A stretch of 64,000 nucleotides of DNA from Bhargavaea sp. CC-171006. GTDB taxonomy: Bacteria > Bacillota > Bacilli > Bacillales_A > Planococcaceae. The first letter of the stretch is position 1. Each line of letters begins with the position of its first letter. The translations under genes were made by a program, and so were the position numbers. The notes under the pieces were generated by a model. The model was not told where the DNA came from, did not search any database, and was given only the letters and a program-made list of their open reading frames with translations. Positions 4,750-46,532 of this stretch are shown here, one piece after another. The DNA is taken from contig NZ_QUZH01000015.1 of NCBI RefSeq assembly GCF_009761675.1, positions 1-64,000 on the forward strand, read 5' to 3'.

Positions 4750-5438
4750 CGGACGCCCTCCATTTCCGGCGTTTCCCACTGTTCCTTTGTCCAGGCCATT
4801 CCCCAGAAGTTCAGCTCATAGATGCTGCTTTTGCGGAACCGCTCCGCAAGCTCCAGAATCCGTTCTTCCGGCAGCCCTTCCGCCAGCCGGTTCATCCTCT
4901 CGATCTGCTCGTTCACCAGCCCGCCGAACCACTCGGAGCCATAGGTCGCAATCCACTTGTCATAGATCGGGTGACCCGGCTCGGCGCCCTTCAGCCGTTC
5001 ACCGATCTCCCAATACAGCCAGTAGCACGGCAGCAGTGCCGCAAGCACATCGGCAAGGTCGCCCTCGACGGCCGCCCGGTACATATGCGACGTGTAGGCG
5101 TACGTGGTCGGCGCCGGCCGGAACTCCGCATGCTCTTCCGGGGTCACGCCGAGCATCGTGAAGAATTCCTCGTGAAGCGCCAGTTCCGCGGAGCAGGTCG
5201 CTTCCGCATGCCCGGCAAAGCTTTGTGTCGTCAGCAGGTCCTTTGCCTTCACCGCGCCAAGTGCCTGGACCTTGGCGAAATGCGACAGGTAGTACGCATC
5301 CTGCAGCACATAAAACCGGAAGATGTCCTCATCGAGCGTCCCGCCCGCAAGCGCCTCCACGAAAGGATGCCGGAAACTTGCCTCCCAGATCCCGTCGCAC
5401 TCCCGCCGTACCCGTTCACAAAACCCCATCTTCTCCAT
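4746..5438 (-). CDS. tenA: Aminopyrimidine aminohydrolase (TenA, thiaminase II)
   Basis: A 230-residue all-helical protein of the TenA/THI-4 family. TenA hydrolyses formylaminopyrimidine breakdown products of thiamin to give HMP for ThiD. Features seen include HPFVEALAGGTLDEDIFRFYVLQDAYYL, the Cys-containing LLPCYWLYWEIG segment that holds the active-site cysteine, and a conserved YxxW-type ending (SIYELNFWGMAW). It is the first gene after the TPP riboswitch. ATG 5438 has AGGAAAGGGG directly ahead; a second ATG three codons on is a possible alternative. Confidence 0.94.
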   Translation of the reverse strand: MEKMGFCERVRRECDGIWEASFRHPFVEALAGGTLDEDIFRFYVLQDAYYLSHFAKVQALGAVKAKDLLTTQSFAGHAEATCSAELALHEEFFTMLGVTPEEHAEFRPAPTTYAYTSHMYRAAVEGDLADVLAALLPCYWLYWEIGERLKGAEPGHPIYDKWIATYGSEWFGGLVNEQIERMNRLAEGLPEERILELAERFRKSSIYELNFWGMAWTKEQWETPEMEGVR

Positions 5439-5462
5439 CCCCTTTCCTGATTGGGAAACACG

Positions 5463-5497
5463 AAAAAGCCGCCTTCCGGATCAACGCGGAAGGCGGC
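5463..5497 (-). terminator. Riboswitch-controlled terminator
   Basis: GCCGCCTTCC and GGAAGGCGGC form a 10-bp stem followed on the minus strand by TTTTT. It lies between the TPP aptamer and tenA and is the probable expression platform: TPP binding would favour this terminator and stop transcription of the operon. Confidence 0.9.
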
Positions 5498-5530
5498 CTG
5501 AATGTATATTCGGATACAGCAAAGCTGCAG

Positions 5531-5627
5531 GCCCCACTTCCCTACGCCGGTATGATCCGGATCAGGTTCCAAGGGTCCGCGCAGCCCATGCGCGTCTCAG
5601 CCTTTCTGAAAGGCTCCCCCAGTGGCA
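5531..5627 (-). ncRNA. TPP riboswitch aptamer (THI element)
   Basis: Read on the minus strand, the segment has the conserved THI-box blocks in order: GGGGAGCC, GCTGAGA, ACCCTTGGAACCTGATC, then CCGGCGTAGGGAAGTGG. A short P3-type hairpin (GCGCATGGGCTGCGC) lies between them. It precedes the tenA-thiM-thiD-thiE-thiW operon and a terminator, the classic arrangement in Bacillales. The class is certain; exact ends are approximate. Confidence 0.97.
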
Positions 5628-5650
5628 GTTCATGTTCAGTTTTCACACCC

Positions 5651-5678
5651 ACTATATCATGATCGGAATATTTTGCAA
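5651..5678 (-). promoter_or_regulatory. Promoter of the thiamin operon
   Basis: On the minus strand TTGCAA is followed after 16 bases by TATAGT, itself preceded by TG one base upstream (extended -10). It ends about 23 bases before the aptamer, a normal distance for a riboswitch leader. Confidence 0.65.
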
Positions 5679-5687
5679 GCAGGTTCC

Positions 5688-6272
5688 TCACCTGCAGATC
5701 CTGCCGACCGAATCGCGGATGAGCGCTTCAACTGTGTCCGCCCGGAGCCGATCCGGTTCAAGAAAGGCATGGAGCGCAAGCCCGTCGGCGATCGAATAAA
5801 GCCGTTCGGCCTCGAGTTCGATATCCAAATCCTCCTTCAGCGCCCCTTCATGGGCCAGAAAGTCGAACAGCTTGCTGATGGCAGCACCCAGTTCATGGCC
5901 GGGTGCACCCTCCAGATCTTTCCGGTGGCGGATATGTGCCTGGAAAGTGAACCATACGTCCATCTCCGCACGCCGCTCCTCGTCGACCGGCACGATCTCC
6001 AGGAGTACCCGGATCACTTTCTCTTTGGGAGGAAGCTCCTCCTGCAAAATGACCATCGCCCGTTTTTCAACCCGCTCATTGACAAGACGCATCGCGTACA
6101 CCAGCAGTTCATCCTGGTCTCTAAAATAATGCCGCAGGGCACCTGTTGACAGCCCTGCTTCCCCGGCAATGTTACGAACCGTCGCCCCTTCCATGCCCTT
6201 TTCCAGGATGACCCGCCACATGGCTTCCGCAATCTGCTCGCGCCGCTCTTCATGATTCACGATTTTTGGCAT
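5688..6272 (-). CDS. TetR/AcrR family transcriptional regulator
   Basis: This 194-residue protein has a TetR-type helix-turn-helix at residues 8-53, ending in LSTGALRHYFRDQDELLVYAM, and a helical C-terminal sensor domain with several conserved acidic stretches. It resembles BetI/PksA-like members. It is divergent from a four-to-five-helix membrane protein gene with about 100 bp between the starts, so control of that gene and of itself is likely. The ligand cannot be inferred. Confidence 0.9.
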   Translation of the reverse strand: MPKIVNHEERREQIAEAMWRVILEKGMEGATVRNIAGEAGLSTGALRHYFRDQDELLVYAMRLVNERVEKRAMVILQEELPPKEKVIRVLLEIVPVDEERRAEMDVWFTFQAHIRHRKDLEGAPGHELGAAISKLFDFLAHEGALKEDLDIELEAERLYSIADGLALHAFLEPDRLRADTVEALIRDSVGRICR

Positions 6273-40786: not shown

Positions 40787-40814
40787 AAAAAAACGGACCG
40801 GTGCATCCGGTCCG
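40787..40814 (-). terminator. Terminator separated from its gene by the transposon
   Basis: CGGACCGG, loop, CCGGTCCG followed on the minus strand by TTTTTTT. Removing the element at 40820-46089 and one copy of the 10-bp duplication places this hairpin about 10 bases behind the stop codon of the minus-strand gene at 46100-46384, whose terminator it must have been. Confidence 0.85.
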
Positions 40815-40819
40815 CGATG
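40810..40819. repeat. Target-site duplication, left copy
   Basis: GTCCGCGATG directly abuts the left inverted repeat and is repeated without mismatch at 46090-46099. Confidence 0.92.
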
Positions 40820-40845
40820 TAACCCGTTCAGTTGTGTGGTGCAAA
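40820..40845 (+). repeat. Left terminal inverted repeat
   Basis: TAACCCGTTCAGTTG, then T, then GTGGTGCAAA. The right end reads the same inwards except for A at the sixteenth base. Confidence 0.93.
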
Positions 40846-40866
40846 ACAAGAAATAACAGTGGAATT

Positions 40867-40904
40867 AGACCCCGAATCAGCAATGATTTCGGCGGTCTTT
40901 TTTT
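40867..40904 (+). terminator. Inward terminator near the left end
   Basis: AGACC...CGAATCA, loop GCAA, TGATTTCG...GGTCT then TTTTTTT. It would stop host transcripts from entering the transposase genes. Confidence 0.75.
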
Positions 40905-40946
40905 GTTGATATGCATGGGTTTATCCCGTTTTGGCAATGATTTTAA

Positions 40947-40996
40947 CATGCTAATTAGCATGAGTTTTGACAAACGCACAATAATTATTGTACGAT
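40947..40996 (+). promoter_or_regulatory. Promoter and operators of the transposase operon
   Basis: TTGACA (40967) and TACGAT (40991) are 18 bases apart. A 14-bp palindrome ACAATAATTATTGT (40978-40991) fills the spacer and a 16-bp palindrome CATGCTAATTAGCATG (40947-40962) lies just upstream. The RHH-like protein encoded next is a natural candidate to bind them. Confidence 0.7.
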
Positions 40997-41006
40997 CAAA
41001 AAATCG

Positions 41007-41096
41007 TGCTAAAACGACTGCTAAAACGTTGCTGAAATCCTGCTGAAACTGCTGCTGATTTTGTTGCTAAAACCACTGCTAAAAAAACCGCTGAAA
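41007..41096 (+). repeat. Eight ~12-bp iterons
   Basis: The motif (T/C)GCT(A/G)A, mostly TGCTAAAAC or TGCTGAAA, starts at 41007, 41019, 41030, 41041, 41053, 41065, 41077 and 41089, every 11 or 12 bp. The last unit overlaps the ribosome site of the RHH-like gene. Two similar units in the same orientation occur near the right end (46026 and 46038, again 12 bp apart). Confidence 0.85.
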
Positions 41097-41107
41097 GGAA
41101 TATAGAA

Positions 41108-41344
41108 ATGAATTTCATTACACCGAAAAATGCCAACAAAGAAAAGGTCACCTGGACAATCAATCACAAAGTCGCACGTTTGGTCGAGCATTATGCAGAG
41201 TACACAGGTTACAGCACGGACGAGGTCGTATCCGAGTTCCTTGAAAACCTTCTCCATGACGAGGAGTTCAAATCCCACATCAAATCAAAGCGGAATAACA
41301 AGCGGATTCTAAAAGACTTGGAGCTGAAAGAAGATGATCTATAA
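41108..41344 (+). CDS. RHH-like small regulator of the transposon
   Basis: A 78-residue protein. The segment KVTWTINHKVARLVEHYAEY...STDEVVSEFLENLL has the strand followed by two helices of ribbon-helix-helix DNA-binding proteins; the rest is charged. AAAGGAATATAGAA precedes the ATG. It overlaps the transposase start by 11 bp. It may repress the operon through the palindromes upstream or help bind the iterons. The family is not certain. Confidence 0.7.
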   Translation: MNFITPKNANKEKVTWTINHKVARLVEHYAEYTGYSTDEVVSEFLENLLHDEEFKSHIKSKRNNKRILKDLELKEDDL

Positions 41345-43277
41345 AGAACTCGTTTCATCTGCTCATCGGTTTATTGAATTCGAATATCCAGTATCGGACG
41401 ATGAACTGATATTAAGGGAATCCGAATATGAAGTTTTGAGCCCTAAGAAATTCAACACGAAACGGACAAAAGAGGCTTTCCGTCCATTCAGATTCTCTTT
41501 TCAGGGGAAAGTTTACGAGCTGAGCTTGAACAAATGTACCAATCCCTTGTGCAAAAACTATGGGATGCCCCAAGAGAAATTTGATATCAAGGGAATCCCT
41601 TCCAGATATCGATTGAACAGCAAGAGCAACGAGTCAGCAATTCGATGTAATGAAGAAAAAGTAGACCCTAAATCCCCTCCTACTGGTAACTGCACAACAA
41701 GGGCCTTGTCGAACTGGTCAATTGCAGAGGAAATTGACCGCCTTGTCCGCATCAACCAAGTGAAGCCTGTTGAGGTTGATTATGAATTCCATAAGGACGG
41801 TTGCTCTGTTTCTATGCATACACCTAAAACAGCCCCCAAGTCCTTTTATAAACGAGGAACCAATGTTGCAAAGTCGCAGAAATATCAGTGCAAGACATGC
41901 AAAAAAATCACGTCTGTCCGTCCTAATAAACGGCAGAACGTGACTTTTAATCAAAAGAAAAATGAAATTCTCCCCCGATTTGCTGAACTTATAGTGAATA
42001 AGGTTCCAATTAATCGCTCTTGTGAGATTTTGAAAATCGGGAAAGGGACGTATTATCACAAGCTGGAATGGCTTTATCGCTGTTGCTTGGAGTTTCTGGA
42101 GACTCATGAAACAAAAGCATTACAGAAGAAAGAGTTTCCTGAACTGTGGATTACGACCGATAAGCTCCATTATGCTTTGAACAATGTTCCAAAGAAAGGG
42201 CAAGGGAAGAGTTGGGGCGAGGTGTATGAGGATAGGCAGATGATGACTTTTTTGCTTGCATCCGCCGACAAGAATTCGAGGTATGTCTTCCGTTCGGACA
42301 TTTGCTATGACTGGGATGTTTCTTTGGATGATGTCATCGACCACACGCACAGATTTAAAGATGACCACCTGGCGATTTACCATCAAAGGTTTGCCCGTTT
42401 CGGTGAATATGGCACGGCTCCTATGAAGCCAACTACTAATGACACTCAATCGATGGCTGAATACCGAGAGGAACTTCGCCACTTTGAATTAAGGCGTAAC
42501 TATGTAGACGGCTTGCACGTAAGTCAAACCTACACTGCAATAGCTCACTTTTGGCTCATTCGGCAGATGCTCAACACAGACAGATGGCGATTCATATCTG
42601 ACAGCGACGAATCATTGAAGAAGTCCATCTTCAGTGTCTTTAATGAGGAAATCAGAAGCAAAATGGCCCATTACTTCCTCTGCATGACCGTTAAGAATCT
42701 GACTCGTGGACAGGCAAAGAGTGCCTATCATTCCGCCATTGGTTCCTTGAAGGAATGGTCCGAAGCCAAAGGCTATGACTCAAAAAACTTAGAGATGATG
42801 GCCATTTGGTACTTGGAAGATCAATTAAAGCAACACAAATTCCAAGAGCAGCATGTCGCTCCTAATGGTGAAGTGTACTACACACAATTGAAAAACCGAA
42901 TTGACCATCCCATTCCCTCGCTTGACCGAGGCTACCGCAAACTGGATGTTCTAACCGATTTGAATCATTTGAATGAGAACGCCCTCGCCAAAATCCTAAT
43001 TAACGTGAACGACAACGCGGTGAATGCTTTCTTTCAAACGGTACGTAGGAGAATCTCTATGTTGGAAAGACCCCTTACCACGGCAAGGGGGGATGGGAAG
43101 AGCTATATTTATGCCAACTTCAATCCAAAGTACGCTCAGATGGCCATCACGATTTTGAGAACTTACTACAACTTCTGTCTAACCTATAAAACGGGCAAGA
43201 AAGAACAAACACCTGCCCAAGCATTGGGTATTACGGATAAAAAGTTCGAATGGTACGACATCATATACAAACGTTAG
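41334..43277 (+). CDS. Large zinc-finger transposase (IS1-like in layout)
   Basis: A 647-residue protein. Near the N-terminus lies a Cys pair (NKCTNPLCKNYG, residues 68 and 73) and later a second (YQCKTCKK), followed by KVPINRSCEILKIGKGTYYHKLEWLY, a helix-turn-helix like that after the zinc finger of IS1-type transposases. A candidate first catalytic Asp is in WITTDKLHYAL (Asp276). The ending YYNFCLTYKTGKKEQTPAQALGI is the familiar transposase tail. It is much longer than IS1 (about 230 residues). I place it only as a DDE-type transposase; the family may be undescribed or one I do not recall. Confidence 0.85.
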   Translation: MIYKELVSSAHRFIEFEYPVSDDELILRESEYEVLSPKKFNTKRTKEAFRPFRFSFQGKVYELSLNKCTNPLCKNYGMPQEKFDIKGIPSRYRLNSKSNESAIRCNEEKVDPKSPPTGNCTTRALSNWSIAEEIDRLVRINQVKPVEVDYEFHKDGCSVSMHTPKTAPKSFYKRGTNVAKSQKYQCKTCKKITSVRPNKRQNVTFNQKKNEILPRFAELIVNKVPINRSCEILKIGKGTYYHKLEWLYRCCLEFLETHETKALQKKEFPELWITTDKLHYALNNVPKKGQGKSWGEVYEDRQMMTFLLASADKNSRYVFRSDICYDWDVSLDDVIDHTHRFKDDHLAIYHQRFARFGEYGTAPMKPTTNDTQSMAEYREELRHFELRRNYVDGLHVSQTYTAIAHFWLIRQMLNTDRWRFISDSDESLKKSIFSVFNEEIRSKMAHYFLCMTVKNLTRGQAKSAYHSAIGSLKEWSEAKGYDSKNLEMMAIWYLEDQLKQHKFQEQHVAPNGEVYYTQLKNRIDHPIPSLDRGYRKLDVLTDLNHLNENALAKILINVNDNAVNAFFQTVRRRISMLERPLTTARGDGKSYIYANFNPKYAQMAITILRTYYNFCLTYKTGKKEQTPAQALGITDKKFEWYDIIYKR

Positions 43278-43293
43278 TTTTTGTTAGGAAAAA

Positions 43294-43318
43294 ACACCCA
43301 TTATTAGGTGCTTTTTCA
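43294..43318 (+). terminator. Terminator of the transposase operon
   Basis: CACC, loop CATTATTA, GGTGC then TTTTT, about 20 bases after the transposase stop. It resembles the other GCACCC hairpins in the element. Confidence 0.65.
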
Positions 43319-43353
43319 CTTTGTAGTTCAATTAAATTGATCATTTAAGGTTA

Positions 43354-43803
43354 TTAAAAAGGTGTATACTTAATTAATTCCCATTCCAAGTCTTCGCTTT
43401 CCAATCTCATATCAATTGGATTTGTTAATCGTTCAGTCATTAAATACCTTTTTGACCCAATTACTACATTTTGTGAATCAAAACCTATTTCATAGGTCTC
43501 TTTATCAGTTTTAATTACTAAAGTTTTGGTAATGTGCGGTAGGTTTTTTAACGAGGCCCTCTTTAATCTAAGTTGATCAGACAAAATCGTATTGATCACT
43601 TTCTGATCCTTTATCTCTGCATAAACAGTTTCACCTAGGAATGGGACATCTCCATAGACTGATATTTGCTCAACCTCTTCGTCCTCGCTTATTAAATCTG
43701 TGATTAATTCTTCGAAGCTTGTTTTCTTAGAATAATCATAAAGAAAGTAACCAGTGATAATAATTGCTATTGTAATACCGACAACGGTTCTCTTTTTATT
43801 CAT
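43354..43803 (-). CDS. Membrane-anchored hypothetical protein (cargo)
   Basis: A 149-residue protein with a single N-terminal helix (residues 5-25, VVGITIAIIITGYFLY) and an external mixed domain rich in Glu and Lys. AGGAGGAGGATTT precedes the ATG. No family was recognised; the type of small anchored protein is common in Bacillus accessory DNA. It has its own minus-strand orientation, against the transposase. Confidence 0.75.
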   Translation of the reverse strand: MNKKRTVVGITIAIIITGYFLYDYSKKTSFEELITDLISEDEEVEQISVYGDVPFLGETVYAEIKDQKVINTILSDQLRLKRASLKNLPHITKTLVIKTDKETYEIGFDSQNVVIGSKRYLMTERLTNPIDMRLESEDLEWELIKYTPF

Positions 43804-43882
43804 AAATCCTCCTCCTCGAAAAATGCACTCTGCTTATTATGTGTTCCTACTGCCAACCTGAGTGCTAAGCCTCCAGAATATT

Positions 43883-43906
43883 AGCATCCATTTCGGGTGC
43901 TTTTTT
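43883..43906 (+). terminator. GCACCC-type hairpin
   Basis: AGCATCCA, loop TTTC, GGGTGCT then TTTTT, oriented to the plus strand although both neighbouring genes are on the minus strand. It may be a remnant of a lost plus-strand gene. Confidence 0.55.
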
Positions 43907-43976
43907 GCTTTTGTGGAGCCCGTTAATGAGTAGGTAACTCCACTATCGGATTACATAGAGAGTTTTCCTATTACTT

Positions 43977-44555
43977 TTAATATCTAAATTGGATCCATTC
44001 AGTTTCTTTCGGAAAATCTTCTCGTGAAAGGATCCCGCCAGTTATTAATTGATGATAGGAAGTGATAGTCCCATCATGGGAAACGATGAATACTCTACCA
44101 TTATCCACCGTTTTACATTTTGAAAGAAAACCCCTTGCTAAAATTTCAAAGGTTCGTTCATCCATAGTATTTATTCCAATTTCCCATAATTCCATGGAGT
44201 TTCCTTTATCGTCATACTCAAGGTCTGGATATTCATTTTTGATTCTGTCTAATTCAAGAATCCTATCACATGGTAGTGTTTTTTTATGAGGATGAATAGG
44301 GAACATTCGCGGAGATACTAATGGGCTAACAACCATACGACAATTACTATTCCCGCAAAAAATAAGAGCTGTTTCCAAGGTTCTTCGAGTTGGGCTAATT
44401 ATAATGATATCTTTCTCATTTAAGAGAAACTGATCTTTTAATAGTCTTGCTTGATCACGTCCTAATGAAGTCAACGCTGGATCGCAATGTTGTAAACTTT
44501 TGGGCATGTCCATTGTATGTTCCCCTTGGCCATGTCGAATAAATATTAATTCCAT
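43977..44555 (-). CDS. Histidine phosphatase family protein (cargo)
   Basis: A 192-residue phosphoglycerate-mutase-like protein with RHGQGEHT (residues 7-14, phospho-His in RHG), SPTRRTLETALIF and the second His in VFIVSHDGTITSYHQL. It is unrelated in detail to the host enzyme at 34001. A GTG one codon earlier is possible; the ribosome site is weak (GGTGATGTG). Substrate unknown. Confidence 0.85.
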   Translation of the reverse strand: MELIFIRHGQGEHTMDMPKSLQHCDPALTSLGRDQARLLKDQFLLNEKDIIIISPTRRTLETALIFCGNSNCRMVVSPLVSPRMFPIHPHKKTLPCDRILELDRIKNEYPDLEYDDKGNSMELWEIGINTMDERTFEILARGFLSKCKTVDNGRVFIVSHDGTITSYHQLITGGILSREDFPKETEWIQFRY

Positions 44556-44620
44556 CACATCACCAACTCACTTGAAATTCATTTTTCTTGAACATGGGTA
44601 AGTGAAAACTGCACACAAGA

Positions 44621-44938
44621 TTAATGATTAATTTCCTTCATTAAGATGCCCTTGACCAAGCTTATTATCCCCAATAAAAATAGTATAGGAAACAAGAACA
44701 TTGGATAAATCACGACTGCCCACCCTGTATTCTCCACCGTTCCAAATGCATAAAGACCACTAATCAACCAAGAAAAAGCAGGAGCGATAATTAACATCAA
44801 AGTTAATCCCCAAACAATACTTTTCCTTTTCTCCGTTTTTTGTTTATTTAAAACGTAAGCAGATGTTATGCCTATAATCAAGATTAATAAAGGTATTACT
44901 ATTTTAACAATCATCTTCCCCAGCCTCTCATCGGTCAT
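44621..44938 (-). CDS. Three-helix membrane protein (cargo)
   Basis: A 105-residue protein with three hydrophobic helices (about residues 9-30, 42-65 and 74-97) and few loops. A start at ATG 44914 with GAGAGG upstream would shorten it by eight residues. It lies 65 bp upstream of the phosphatase gene and may be cotranscribed with it. Family unknown. Confidence 0.7.
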   Translation of the reverse strand: MTDERLGKMIVKIVIPLLILIIGITSAYVLNKQKTEKRKSIVWGLTLMLIIAPAFSWLISGLYAFGTVENTGWAVVIYPMFLFPILFLLGIISLVKGILMKEINH

Positions 44939-45226
44939 TTATTACCACGCTAATAAGCCGACTCAAAATTTCCGACTCCACCTTATTTCATATCGGCATT
45001 TATTGTCTCGCAAGAGCAGTTTAAATAATTTTTTTATCAGCAGCATATAATGTATCCATTACTTGAAAAGTGCCCGACAAGTGTTCAGAGGATAGTCGTT
45101 TCTTTAAAGTATTCAATTTTAATTTTTAAAATTCCTTTCTTCTCCATCGATTTGAGTTTTAATAGCGAATTGGATTAACCTTATTTGCAGGTAAAAATCC
45201 ACTTAAAGAAGTGAAGGGAGTATACA

Positions 45227-45727
45227 TTGTCCAAAAAGAAAATTCTCACTTTATTTCTAATTCTCTGCTTCATTGGATGGCAAACCGTCAAAGCATTTCA
45301 ACAAACGGGTATAGAAAATCACTATCACGAGTTAGGTTACAAGTCTGTTTCGCAGGCAATTCAGGAAGCTGAATTTTTTTATGGAACAAATATAAAGTTA
45401 CCAGAATTACCGCCTTTAGAATTTACCCATTCATTCGGAAGATTCAGTGAAGAGCACGAAAACCTTGAAATTGAATTCTTGAATGAGAAAAAACGTTTTA
45501 ATTACATTATAAACATTATGCCTAGTGAAATTAGAATGAACACGCTTGGGTATACTAAAATATCCTTAGAGGATGGGACACAAGCATATTATTCATCTTC
45601 AGGAACGGATCATAAAGTAATGGTCTTTATTTTTGAAAAGAACAACTGGATATATATGTTAAGTATTGAGGAAGCTCTGTTAGATAATCCATTGCAAACA
45701 CTGGCGGATGTTGCAAATTCACTTTAA
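45227..45727 (+). CDS. Secreted or anchored hypothetical protein (cargo)
   Basis: A 166-residue protein starting at TTG 45227, with AAGGGAG six bases upstream. Residues 5-23 form a signal or anchor helix. The remainder is an external beta-rich domain with IEDG-like loop (KISLEDGTQAYYSS) and a WIYMLSIEE strand, reminiscent of the DUF4367 group but not firmly placed. It is the last gene of the element. Confidence 0.75.
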   Translation: MSKKKILTLFLILCFIGWQTVKAFQQTGIENHYHELGYKSVSQAIQEAEFFYGTNIKLPELPPLEFTHSFGRFSEEHENLEIEFLNEKKRFNYIINIMPSEIRMNTLGYTKISLEDGTQAYYSSSGTDHKVMVFIFEKNNWIYMLSIEEALLDNPLQTLADVANSL

Positions 45728-45882
45728 CGTCTTTAAACGCAAGTGAAAATAAAGTGGTTAGGACAAGATGATTCGGCAGGCAACCGAATCTATTACAAAT
45801 TCGAGTAATACACAACCAGCCACCAAACCCCATGACACGGTTTGATGGCTGTTTCATTTATTCAATCCTACAGTTCCAGTTG

Positions 45883-45905
45883 AAGCACCCATTATGGGTG
45901 CTTTT
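45883..45905 (+). terminator. GCACCC-type terminator
   Basis: AGCACCC, loop ATTAT, GGGTGCT then TTTTCGCTTT. It follows the secreted-protein gene by 150 bp. Confidence 0.7.
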
Positions 45906-45982
45906 CGCTTTGCAAAAAAAAGTAATTGAGTGATCTCCTAAAGAACCGCTGGTTACTGTGCTAATGAGCGTTTCTAATCATC

Positions 45983-46007
45983 AAAAAAAGCACCCATCTG
46001 GGTGCTT
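45983..46007 (-). terminator. GCACCC-type terminator facing the interior
   Basis: AGCACCC, short loop, GGGTGCT with TTTTTTT on the minus strand. It would stop host transcription entering from the right end. Confidence 0.65.
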
Positions 46008-46063
46008 AAAACGATGTTAATGTCTAGCTAAAACGTCTGCTAATTGCTATGCCGATTCGCCTG

Positions 46064-46089
46064 TTTGCACCACTCAACTGAACGGGTTA
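46064..46089 (-). repeat. Right terminal inverted repeat
   Basis: Read inwards on the minus strand: TAACCCGTTCAGTTG, then A, then GTGGTGCAAA; 25 of 26 bases equal the left end. Confidence 0.93.
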
Positions 46090-46099
46090 GTCCGCGATG
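46090..46099. repeat. Target-site duplication, right copy
   Basis: GTCCGCGATG, identical to 40810-40819, directly abuts the right inverted repeat and ends one base before the stop codon of the next gene. Confidence 0.92.
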
Positions 46100-46384
46100 T
46101 CATGCGTCTTTATTGTTGCGGCAGTATTCGAGGACCTCTTGTTCCTCGTCTTCTTCAAGCTCAAAGCCCATCGCCTTGCCGGTGGCGGCTTCGATGAAGT
46201 CGTAGGTCGCGATCCATTCGCGGCCGTCGTGCTCGGCGAAGATGGCGCGGAGTTTCACGCCGCCTTCCGTGTACAGCTCGTCCTCTTCTTCGATGTCGAG
46301 TTCCAGGAAGAACTCATAGCGGTCCCCTTCAATGATTCCCGTAGGGTCGTTCAGCAGTTCGACCGTGTGGCCCGTGATTTCCAT
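46100..46384 (-). CDS. Small conserved acidic protein (DUF6509-like)
   Basis: A 94-residue acidic protein: MEITGHTVELLNDPTGIIEG, then ERYEFFLELDIEEEDELYTE-type strands and EEDEEQEVLEYC at the end. It looks like the small Bacillales family DUF6509, sometimes misnamed pullulanase. ATG 46384 has GGAAGG nine bases upstream; ATG 46393 is an alternative. The transposon is inserted directly behind its stop codon and has moved its terminator 5.3 kb away. Confidence 0.75.
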   Translation of the reverse strand: MEITGHTVELLNDPTGIIEGDRYEFFLELDIEEEDELYTEGGVKLRAIFAEHDGREWIATYDFIEAATGKAMGFELEEDEEQEVLEYCRNNKDA

Positions 46385-46532
46385 GTGCAACATCCTTCCG
46401 TTCCTTGTTGGTGGTTATATTATACCCGAGAGGAGCGCCAGGGACGCGGGGAAATCGAATTTATGCGTTGTTAATAGTTTGTTCATATCTGTCCCTTAAA
46501 GTGGAGTCAACAGAAGCAAGGAGGAAATGCAG

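What the first reader, a model, noticed from the sequence alone, without database searches (positions are those of the whole stretch)
40810..46099. Intact 5.27-kb transposable element with 26-bp inverted ends and a 10-bp target duplication
Both ends were found directly: 25 of 26 bases match as inverted repeats, and GTCCGCGATG is repeated perfectly outside each end. A 10-bp duplication with a 647-residue zinc-finger transposase, an RHH-like partner and four unrelated cargo genes does not fit the common families I know (IS1 8-9 bp, IS1595 8 bp, Tn7 5 bp, Tn3 5 bp). It may define a cargo-carrying transposon family that has not been named.
Basis: partly seen in the sequence, partly recalled or inferred. 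Interest (0 to 1): 0.85.

Follow-up and report, generated by a model that had tools for sequence, protein, structure and literature searches.

The report
Cargo transposon homing to terminators
This is an intact jumping gene that carries four passenger genes; it belongs to a wide, little-described family, one named member of which carries a trimethoprim-resistance gene, and most members examined sit in the hairpins that end bacterial transcripts.

Summary
In detail: 40820-46089 is a 5,270-bp element with 26-bp inverted ends (25 matching), flanked by GTCCGCGATG. Five of seven congeners hold the uninterrupted site; two could not be judged. "Unnamed family" is partly right: the dfrG transposon Tn7491 (PMC10763498, passages read) is a named relative with a 48%-identical transposase, similar 27-bp ends and a 9-bp duplication. 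Of 85 loci examined, 58 have paired TAA...GTTC-like ends plus a 9- or 10-bp duplication; 53 of these hold a further ORF of 110 aa or more, of many kinds. A ribbon-helix-helix-like gene precedes the transposase in 45 of 58; D276, D423 and E578 are invariant in 46 aligned transposases. The unexpected result is the target: in 44 of 58 sites the duplication is centred on a hairpin, typically an intrinsic terminator, against 1.5% of control positions. The window copy is an off-centre case: its duplication overlaps the terminator's arm, 10.5 nt from the centre. Two congeners without the transposase carry five 0.9-1.15-kb elements with near-identical ends. New variant of a known kind; how the hairpin is recognised is inferred.

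The parts
40810..40819 (.). target-site duplication, left copy GTCCGCGATG
   Evidence: one copy at this place in 5 of 7 congeners, with substitutions near its end
40793..40815 (-). host intrinsic terminator at the insertion site (9-pair stem, then T-run on the - strand), downstream of the DUF6509 gene; the duplication overlaps one arm
40820..40845 (+). left terminal inverted repeat (26 bp)
40867..40904 (+). hairpin with T-run just inside the left end (would stop transcription entering from the left; inference)
   Evidence: read from the sequence; not listed by the scan
40947..40962 (.). 16-bp perfect palindrome CATGCTAATTAGCATG, 4 bp before a TTGACA hexamer: candidate operator of the RHH-like protein (inference)
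40967..40996 (+). candidate promoter of the partner-transposase operon
   Evidence: 10 of 12 consensus; promoter-like sites in the region are no more frequent than in shuffles
40992..41096 (+). left subterminal TGCTAAAAC-type repeats; a related copy lies near the right end at 46011-46043
41108..41344 (+). 78-aa ribbon-helix-helix-like partner, overlapping the transposase start by 11 bp
41334..43277 (+). 647-aa transposase; conserved Cys clusters, IS1-like Zn-ribbon/HTH, RNase-H-like core with D276, D423, E578 and R585
43354..43803 (-). cargo: 149-aa protein, no confident domain
43977..44558 (-). cargo: histidine phosphatase superfamily protein, 193 aa
   Evidence: PF00300, E 6e-13
44621..44938 (-). 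cargo: 105-aa protein, no confident domain
45227..45727 (+). cargo: 166-aa protein, 31% identical to cargo of the relative in L100
45988..46007 (-). intrinsic terminator inside the right end, facing the DUF6509 gene: could replace the terminator that the insertion displaced (inference)
46064..46089 (-). right terminal inverted repeat (26 bp)
46090..46099 (.). target-site duplication, right copy GTCCGCGATG

Best explanation
The element is a unit transposon of the Tn7491 kind. An operon of a small RHH-like DNA-binding protein and a large Zn-finger/HTH/DDE transposase sits at the left end, passenger genes fill the right part, and 26-27-bp ends starting TAA bound the whole. The transposase pairs the two ends and joins them across a 9-10-bp staggered cut. 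It selects targets chiefly by dyad symmetry, as in intrinsic-terminator hairpins flanked by A- and T-runs, so that the cut straddles the loop. This gives a safe site between genes. Shown by sequence: ends, duplication, empty site, invariant D-D-E, partner gene in most copies, cargo variety, other DNA between near-identical ends, and centring of insertions on hairpins in most relatives. Inferred: that the transposase itself reads the hairpin (as bent DNA or an extruded cruciform), that the D-D-E residues are catalytic, that the RHH-like protein is an autoregulator or accessory end-binding factor, and that congener elements without a transposase were moved in trans. Cut-and-paste versus copying is not resolved.
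For: Ends and duplication; empty sites. 58 of 85 loci have paired ends plus a duplication of 9 (46) or 10 bp (12). Dyad score centred on the duplication: median 28.5 against 9 at 1,972 control positions; at cut-offs 15, 20, 25 and 30 it is reached by 50, 44, 36 and 28 of 58 against 10.3, 1.5, 0.4 and 0.1% (the scoring was devised after the sites had been seen). Where a hairpin of score 20 lies within 20 nt (45 of 58), its centre is within 2 nt of the duplication's centre in 44. Swapping arms between sites removes the pairing: 5 or more of 7 Watson-Crick pairs in 19 of 58 against 3.4% of 2,000 swaps; no two of the 58 flanks are homologous. A-run on the left plus T-run on the right in 44 of 58 against 4.8% of control positions and 13% of 2,227 background hairpins. 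Intact transposase: 35 of 41 sites; broken: 9 of 17. Five of five non-autonomous congener elements have a hairpin of score 20 or more (two exactly 20), centred within 3 nt. D276, D423 and E578 in 46 of 46, position 585 R in 43 and K in 2; Foldseek best hits are Tn5 and ISCth4 transposases (E 1.5e-4 to 2e-3, TM about 0.2).
Against: The window's own duplication is 10.5 nt off the hairpin centre; the dyad centred there scores only 15, which 10% of control positions reach. 13 of 58 sites show no hairpin of score 20 within 20 nt, two of them copies of Tn7491 itself (L034, L064). No transposition was observed here. The E578 region is poorly modelled (pLDDT below 50 at 577-595). RHH similarity of the partner is weak by E-value (0.38; probability 0.96), and no partner was found by my ORF rule in 3 of 41 elements with an intact transposase gene (L061, L079, L098). 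Two distant proteobacterial relatives (22-23% identical) have 9- and 10-bp duplications at places that do not look like terminators by eye, so the preference may not hold in the wider superfamily.
Confidence: 0.8

Rival explanations
1. No target recognition: insertions are random but only those in harmless intergenic terminators survive.
For: Terminators lie between genes by nature and insertions elsewhere could be costly (inference; gene annotation of all 58 flanks was not checked).
Against: Survival can explain the terminator region but not centring to within 2 nt in 44 of 45 hairpin sites, nor the fall of the mean dyad score from 24 at the centre to 7-9 at 3 nt on either side.
Confidence: 0.07
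2. Recognition of flanking A- and T-tracts (DNA bending) rather than of the hairpin.
For: 44 of 58 sites have both tracts; 9 of these, the window among them, have only weak centred hairpins.
Against: 9 of 12 sites with a single tract still have hairpins of score 20 or more; site-specific arm pairing disappears on swapping.
Confidence: 0.25
3. A member of the IS1 family that has grown.
For: 39 of 46 transposases match NF033558 (IS1) at E 0.01 or better; the Zn-ribbon/HTH part aligns with E. coli InsA, hhalign E 4e-5.
Against: The window scores 23.5 bits against a cut-off of 100; the catalytic part does not align with InsB (probability 0.6%); D-to-E spacing is 154 here against 24 in IS1A InsB (the IS1 triad itself is recalled).
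Confidence: 0.15
4. Chance repeats around a resident gene cluster.
For: None found.
Against: Empty sites, shuffles, and 57 further elements.
Confidence: 0.01

Closest known systems
Tn7491 (dfrG transposon, also carried inside Tn6198)
   Same: Gene order small ORF - transposase - cargo; transposase 48% identical; ends TAAGTAGTTCAGTTTTGGAGTACAAAA; 9-, 10- and 9-bp duplications in the three copies first compared; strong centred hairpin in 3 of the 5 copies in my census (L031, L033, L062), weak in L034 and L064
   Different: 3,276 bp with dfrG as only cargo; the window element has four other genes. The main text of its paper holds no occurrence of 'terminator'.
IS1272 / TnSha1 (IS1182 family)
   Same: Inserts into hairpins, several confirmed as terminators, without a sequence consensus, and can carry a passenger gene (PMC4923244, passages)
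   Different: Cuts in the stem, deletes part of the target or replaces the inverted repeat, and leaves no duplication (PMC4923244, PMC5678879, passages); here the cut straddles the loop and duplicates 9-10 bp.
IS1 family
   Same: Zn-ribbon plus HTH N-terminal part; 8-10-bp duplications (recalled)
   Different: Catalytic spacing, size and ends differ; the InsB core is not detectable.
Class C group II introns
   Same: Recalled, not from a call: they insert next to terminator motifs
   Different: Reverse-transcriptase retroelements, not DDE transposons.

Membership tests
Tn7491-type transposons | homologous transposase over full length | tested here: met
   48% identity over residues 4-645
Tn7491-type transposons | 26-27-bp ends TAAnnnGTTC... 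| tested here: met
Tn7491-type transposons | 9-10-bp target duplication | tested here: met
   10 bp here; 9 in 46 and 10 in 12 of 58
Tn7491-type transposons | small RHH-like ORF before the transposase | tested here: met
   RHH fold weakly supported
Tn7491-type transposons | duplication centred on a hairpin (a tendency found here, not a published definition) | tested here: not met
   true of 44 of 58; the window is 10.5 nt off centre though overlapping the terminator
IS1 family | curated profile NF033558 above cut-off | tested here: not met
   23.5 bits against a cut-off of 100
IS1 family | short D-to-E spacing, as in E. coli IS1A | tested here: not met
   154 against 24 residues
IS1 family | InsA-like Zn-ribbon/HTH | tested here: met
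   hhalign E 3.8e-5
IS1595 family | match to an IS1595 transposase profile | tested here: not met
   only the Zn domain shared by IS1 and IS1595 (NF050000, 30 of 46 members) matched; no IS1595 transposase model is among the families listed
IS1182 / IS1272 | hairpin target | tested here: inconclusive
   met by 44 of 58 family sites, off-centre in the window
IS1182 / IS1272 | no duplication, partial target deletion | tested here: not met
   exact 10-bp duplication and contiguous empty site
Tn3 / Tn7 families | 5-bp duplication (recalled) | tested here: not met
   10 bp
any ISfinder / TnCentral entry, including the ISMhu11 subgroup of IS1 (recalled) | listed ends and transposase | not testable with these tools
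   neither database is on hand; 'ISMhu11' occurs in no held paper

The most novel reading that the evidence does not exclude
A broad Firmicutes family of DDE transposons chooses insertion sites by DNA structure, not sequence: its transposase recognises the dyad (possibly an extruded cruciform) of intrinsic terminators and cuts across the loop. The family acts as a general shuttle for single genes and small operons, including transposase-less elements moved in trans, with Tn7491/dfrG as the clinically visible case.
Probability: 0.55. Interest if true: 0.85.

Novelty: new variant of a known kind. Interest (0 to 1): 0.75.

Why it matters
The transposon that carries dfrG in staphylococci, enterococci and Listeria appears to be one branch of a large family that moves many kinds of genes in Bacillales, including spore germination and metal-efflux operons. 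The target rule, the loop of a terminator hairpin with a 9-10-bp stagger, predicts where such elements land. It differs from the only comparable DDE case found in my searches (IS1272), and it makes structure-guided target choice testable in a laboratory Bacillus. Harmless insertion at gene ends would also interest people who build insertion tools.

Tried and rejected
Chance repeats: rejected. Membership of IS1: rejected on spacing and profile score, though the N-terminal part is IS1-like. Phage origin: one viral-contig scan with the window protein, which reaches close relatives only, found nothing. Of three matching phage records, one was fetched and is a Tn7491 copy; a second has the same identity and was not fetched; the third matches over 90 residues only. 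PDB sequence searches found no relative of the transposase and only weak, unrelated hits for the partner. A common subterminal repeat motif: not found. Repeats do occur (top 7-mer seen 4 or more times in 18 of 52 elements against 18 of 1,040 base-composition shuffles), but the words differ between elements and I did not pursue them. PADLOC gave no defence hit for the three window cargo proteins tested (of four); in L103 it hit a type III restriction-modification pair. Literature: the ten searches, several with terms so strict that nothing was listed, showed no paper on terminator targeting by this family. Bertsch 2013 (Tn6198) and the 2014 IS review are not held, so absence from print is not shown. 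Papers seen as passages only: PMC10763498, PMC4432960, PMC8343405, PMC4923244, PMC5678879; all others as listings. The 80 contig loci are the best 80 of 124 relatives. 27 of the 85 loci were dropped from the target count because no paired ends plus duplication were found (contig edges, broken copies, or no duplication, such as L082 and L090). Rows with stop codons or frameshifts were left out of the transposase alignment.
Full report
Observation. The window holds an intact 5,270-bp element at 40820-46089, with 26-bp inverted ends (25 of 26 matching) and an exact 10-bp duplication, GTCCGCGATG. Shuffles do not give this. Of seven congeners, five hold the same flanks uninterrupted with a single copy of the site; the other two could not be judged. 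None of the seven has a transposase match at E 0.001. The insertion lies directly after the stop codon of a DUF6509 gene (46100-46393, minus strand) and separates it from a terminator at 40793-40815. The element has a terminator-like site of its own inside the right end facing that gene (45988-46007), and a second hairpin with T-run inside the left end can be read from the sequence (40867-40904).

Proteins. The 647-aa transposase has weak profile matches to the IS1 Zn-ribbon/HTH region. In 46 aligned relatives D276, D423 and E578 are invariant, and position 585, seven residues after the E, is R in 43 and K in 2. The AlphaFold model (mean pLDDT 86.6) has Tn5 and ISCth4 transposases as best PDB matches, with low TM-scores of about 0.2. 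The stretch 577-595 with the presumed catalytic Glu is poorly modelled. The D-to-E spacing of 154 residues leaves room for an insertion domain; IS1A InsB has 24. Profile comparison finds InsA-like sequence (E 4e-5) but no InsB-like core. A small upstream ORF of one family was found in 45 of 58 elements, and in 38 of the 41 with an intact transposase gene (with the list). Its model gives CopG-, Arc- and antitoxin-type RHH proteins as top Foldseek hits (probability 0.96, E 0.38): consistent, not proof. A perfect 16-bp palindrome (40947-40962) sits just before a TTGACA hexamer, so autoregulation is my guess.

Relatives. Transposase matches at E 0.001 occur in 37 of 261 genomes of the order and 18 of 398 sampled from the class, the own genome counted in both and many of them fragments. 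Plasmid records with a match number 114, of which 90 are Enterococcus; the two dfrG-type records inspected, from S. aureus and Listeria innocua, and one staphylococcal phage record carry dfrG. They are Tn7491, named in PMC10763498 (passages; the paper also spells it Tn4791), with 27-bp ends and a 9-bp duplication, and reported there to have copied itself to a new place within a clinical lineage. The three copies have identical 3,276-bp bodies at different sites. PMC8343405 (passages) ties the same module to the names ISSsu9 and IS1595; my profile searches do not place the transposase in IS1595.

Census. From 164 pattern matches in genome contigs, 124 encoded a relative and the best 80 were kept. 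With four annotated records and the window, 85 loci were examined. 58 have ends matching at 22 or more of 26, starting TAA with a GTTC-like word at positions 7-10, and a duplication (8 exact, or at most one mismatch, was the floor); hairpins played no part in this choice. Duplications are 9 bp in 46 and 10 bp in 12. The 41 elements with an intact transposase gene are 2,987-7,864 bp.

Cargo. 53 of 58 elements hold, besides transposase and partner, an ORF of 110 aa or more. Domains found: DHFR, GNAT, MFS, ABC-2, TetR, zinc alcohol dehydrogenase, erythromycin esterase, a three-gene GerA operon, SpoIIP with a sigma factor, P-type ATPase with an ArsR regulator, NUDIX, aldo-keto reductase, epimerase, ion channel, signal peptidase, type III restriction-modification. 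Of 77 such ORFs listed (window and four repeat Tn7491 copies left out), 39 were given to Pfam and one more to PADLOC only; 10 of the 39 had no match at E 1e-4 or, 1e-3 (one of these, in L073, has a sub-cut-off match at the looser limit). Modules recur between elements: the P-type ATPase pair is 82-84% identical in L081 and L111 in opposite orientations, and a PadR-type regulator recurs in L057, L073, L107 and L121 at 81-95% identity, although the L057 and L073 transposases are only 57% identical.

Other DNA between the same ends. In G003 and G007, which have no transposase match, five elements of 884-1,152 bp carry ends close to the window's (one with two changed bases in its first five) with 9- or 10-bp duplications. 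Three hold ORFs of 78, 100 and 141 aa, one none of 70 aa or more, and the fifth was not checked for ORFs. A degenerate remnant lies in the window's own genome (G000:C6, about 117,980-118,779).

Target. Reading the flanks showed A-run, stem, duplication, stem, T-run again and again, and the scoring was written after that. Scored for dyad symmetry (G-T pairs allowed) centred within 3 nt of the duplication's centre, 44 of 58 sites reach 20 against 1.5% of 1,972 positions 60-300 nt away; other cut-offs give the same picture (Mann-Whitney P 3e-29). The mean score falls from 24 at offset 0 to 7-9 at 3 nt. Of 45 sites with such a hairpin within 20 nt, 44 are centred to within 2 nt. The exception is the window, at 10.5 nt; the weaker dyad centred on its duplication (score 15) is within what 10% of control positions give. 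Thirteen sites have no such hairpin. Swapped arms do not pair, and flanks are not homologous to each other. Both tracts are present in 44 of 58 sites, in 4.8% of control positions and in 13% of 2,227 background hairpins. That these hairpins terminate transcription is inferred from their form; no expression data were seen. Sites of intact elements fit better (35 of 41) than those of broken ones (9 of 17), as expected if flanks decay. All five congener elements fit at the cut-off, two of them only just. In L099 the copy lies between two end-like sequences (the left one read by eye, the right one found), and in L083 beside a second, transposase-less element, so junctions of neighbouring elements may also serve as hairpins.

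Interpretation. Survival of harmless insertions cannot give 2-nt centring, so I infer target recognition, most simply of dyad or hairpin geometry by the transposase. Bending by the two tracts is the main rival. The only DDE precedent found is IS1272/TnSha1 (PMC4923244 and PMC5678879, passages), which cuts the stem, replaces or deletes target and leaves no duplication. Proteobacterial relatives (22-27% identical) differ: L133 and L134 are 2,043 and 1,886 bp with 9- and 10-bp duplications at places that by eye are not terminators; L132 has ends but no direct duplication. With three examples this only suggests that terminator homing belongs to the Firmicutes branch.

Limits. No ISfinder or TnCentral search was possible; the founding Tn6198 paper is not held; no activity was shown; the window copy itself is an atypical site.

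Noticed in passing
window 5522-5630 (-): TPP riboswitch, 89 bits.
   Followed up: no
L176 about 4981-5779 (G000:C6 about 117980-118779): Degenerate, transposase-less remnant of the same element type in the window's own genome, with a 147-aa ORF whose homologue is cargo of an element in G003.
   Followed up: partly
L090 9498-12526: Copy whose flanks are inverted instead of direct repeats (gttgaaac ... gtttcaac), with no duplication: perhaps an inversion or another mode of insertion.
   Followed up: no
L083 9525-13816: Two elements side by side with near-identical flanking duplications; the second is 937 bp without a transposase.
   Followed up: partly
L099 391-3720: Element lying between two end-like sequences, a possible array junction.
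   Followed up: partly
L133 8861-10903; L134 8874-10759: Compact proteobacterial relatives (Marinobacter, Rhizobium plasmids) with perfect 22-bp ends and 9- or 10-bp duplications, no room for a partner gene, not at terminators by eye.
   Followed up: partly
L132 8845-14926: Acidovorax relative with perfect 22-bp ends lying between an A-run and a T-run with GGGA/TCCC arms, but no direct duplication.
   Followed up: no
L079 12162-15899: A three-gene GerA-type spore germination operon as transposon cargo.
   Followed up: no
G002:C13:312-379 and G002:C17:600-1975: A left end and a right end on two contigs, flanked by the same 9-mer CATGCGATG and complementary arms; the C17 part lacks its first 63 bp. 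Perhaps one interrupted element.
   Followed up: partly
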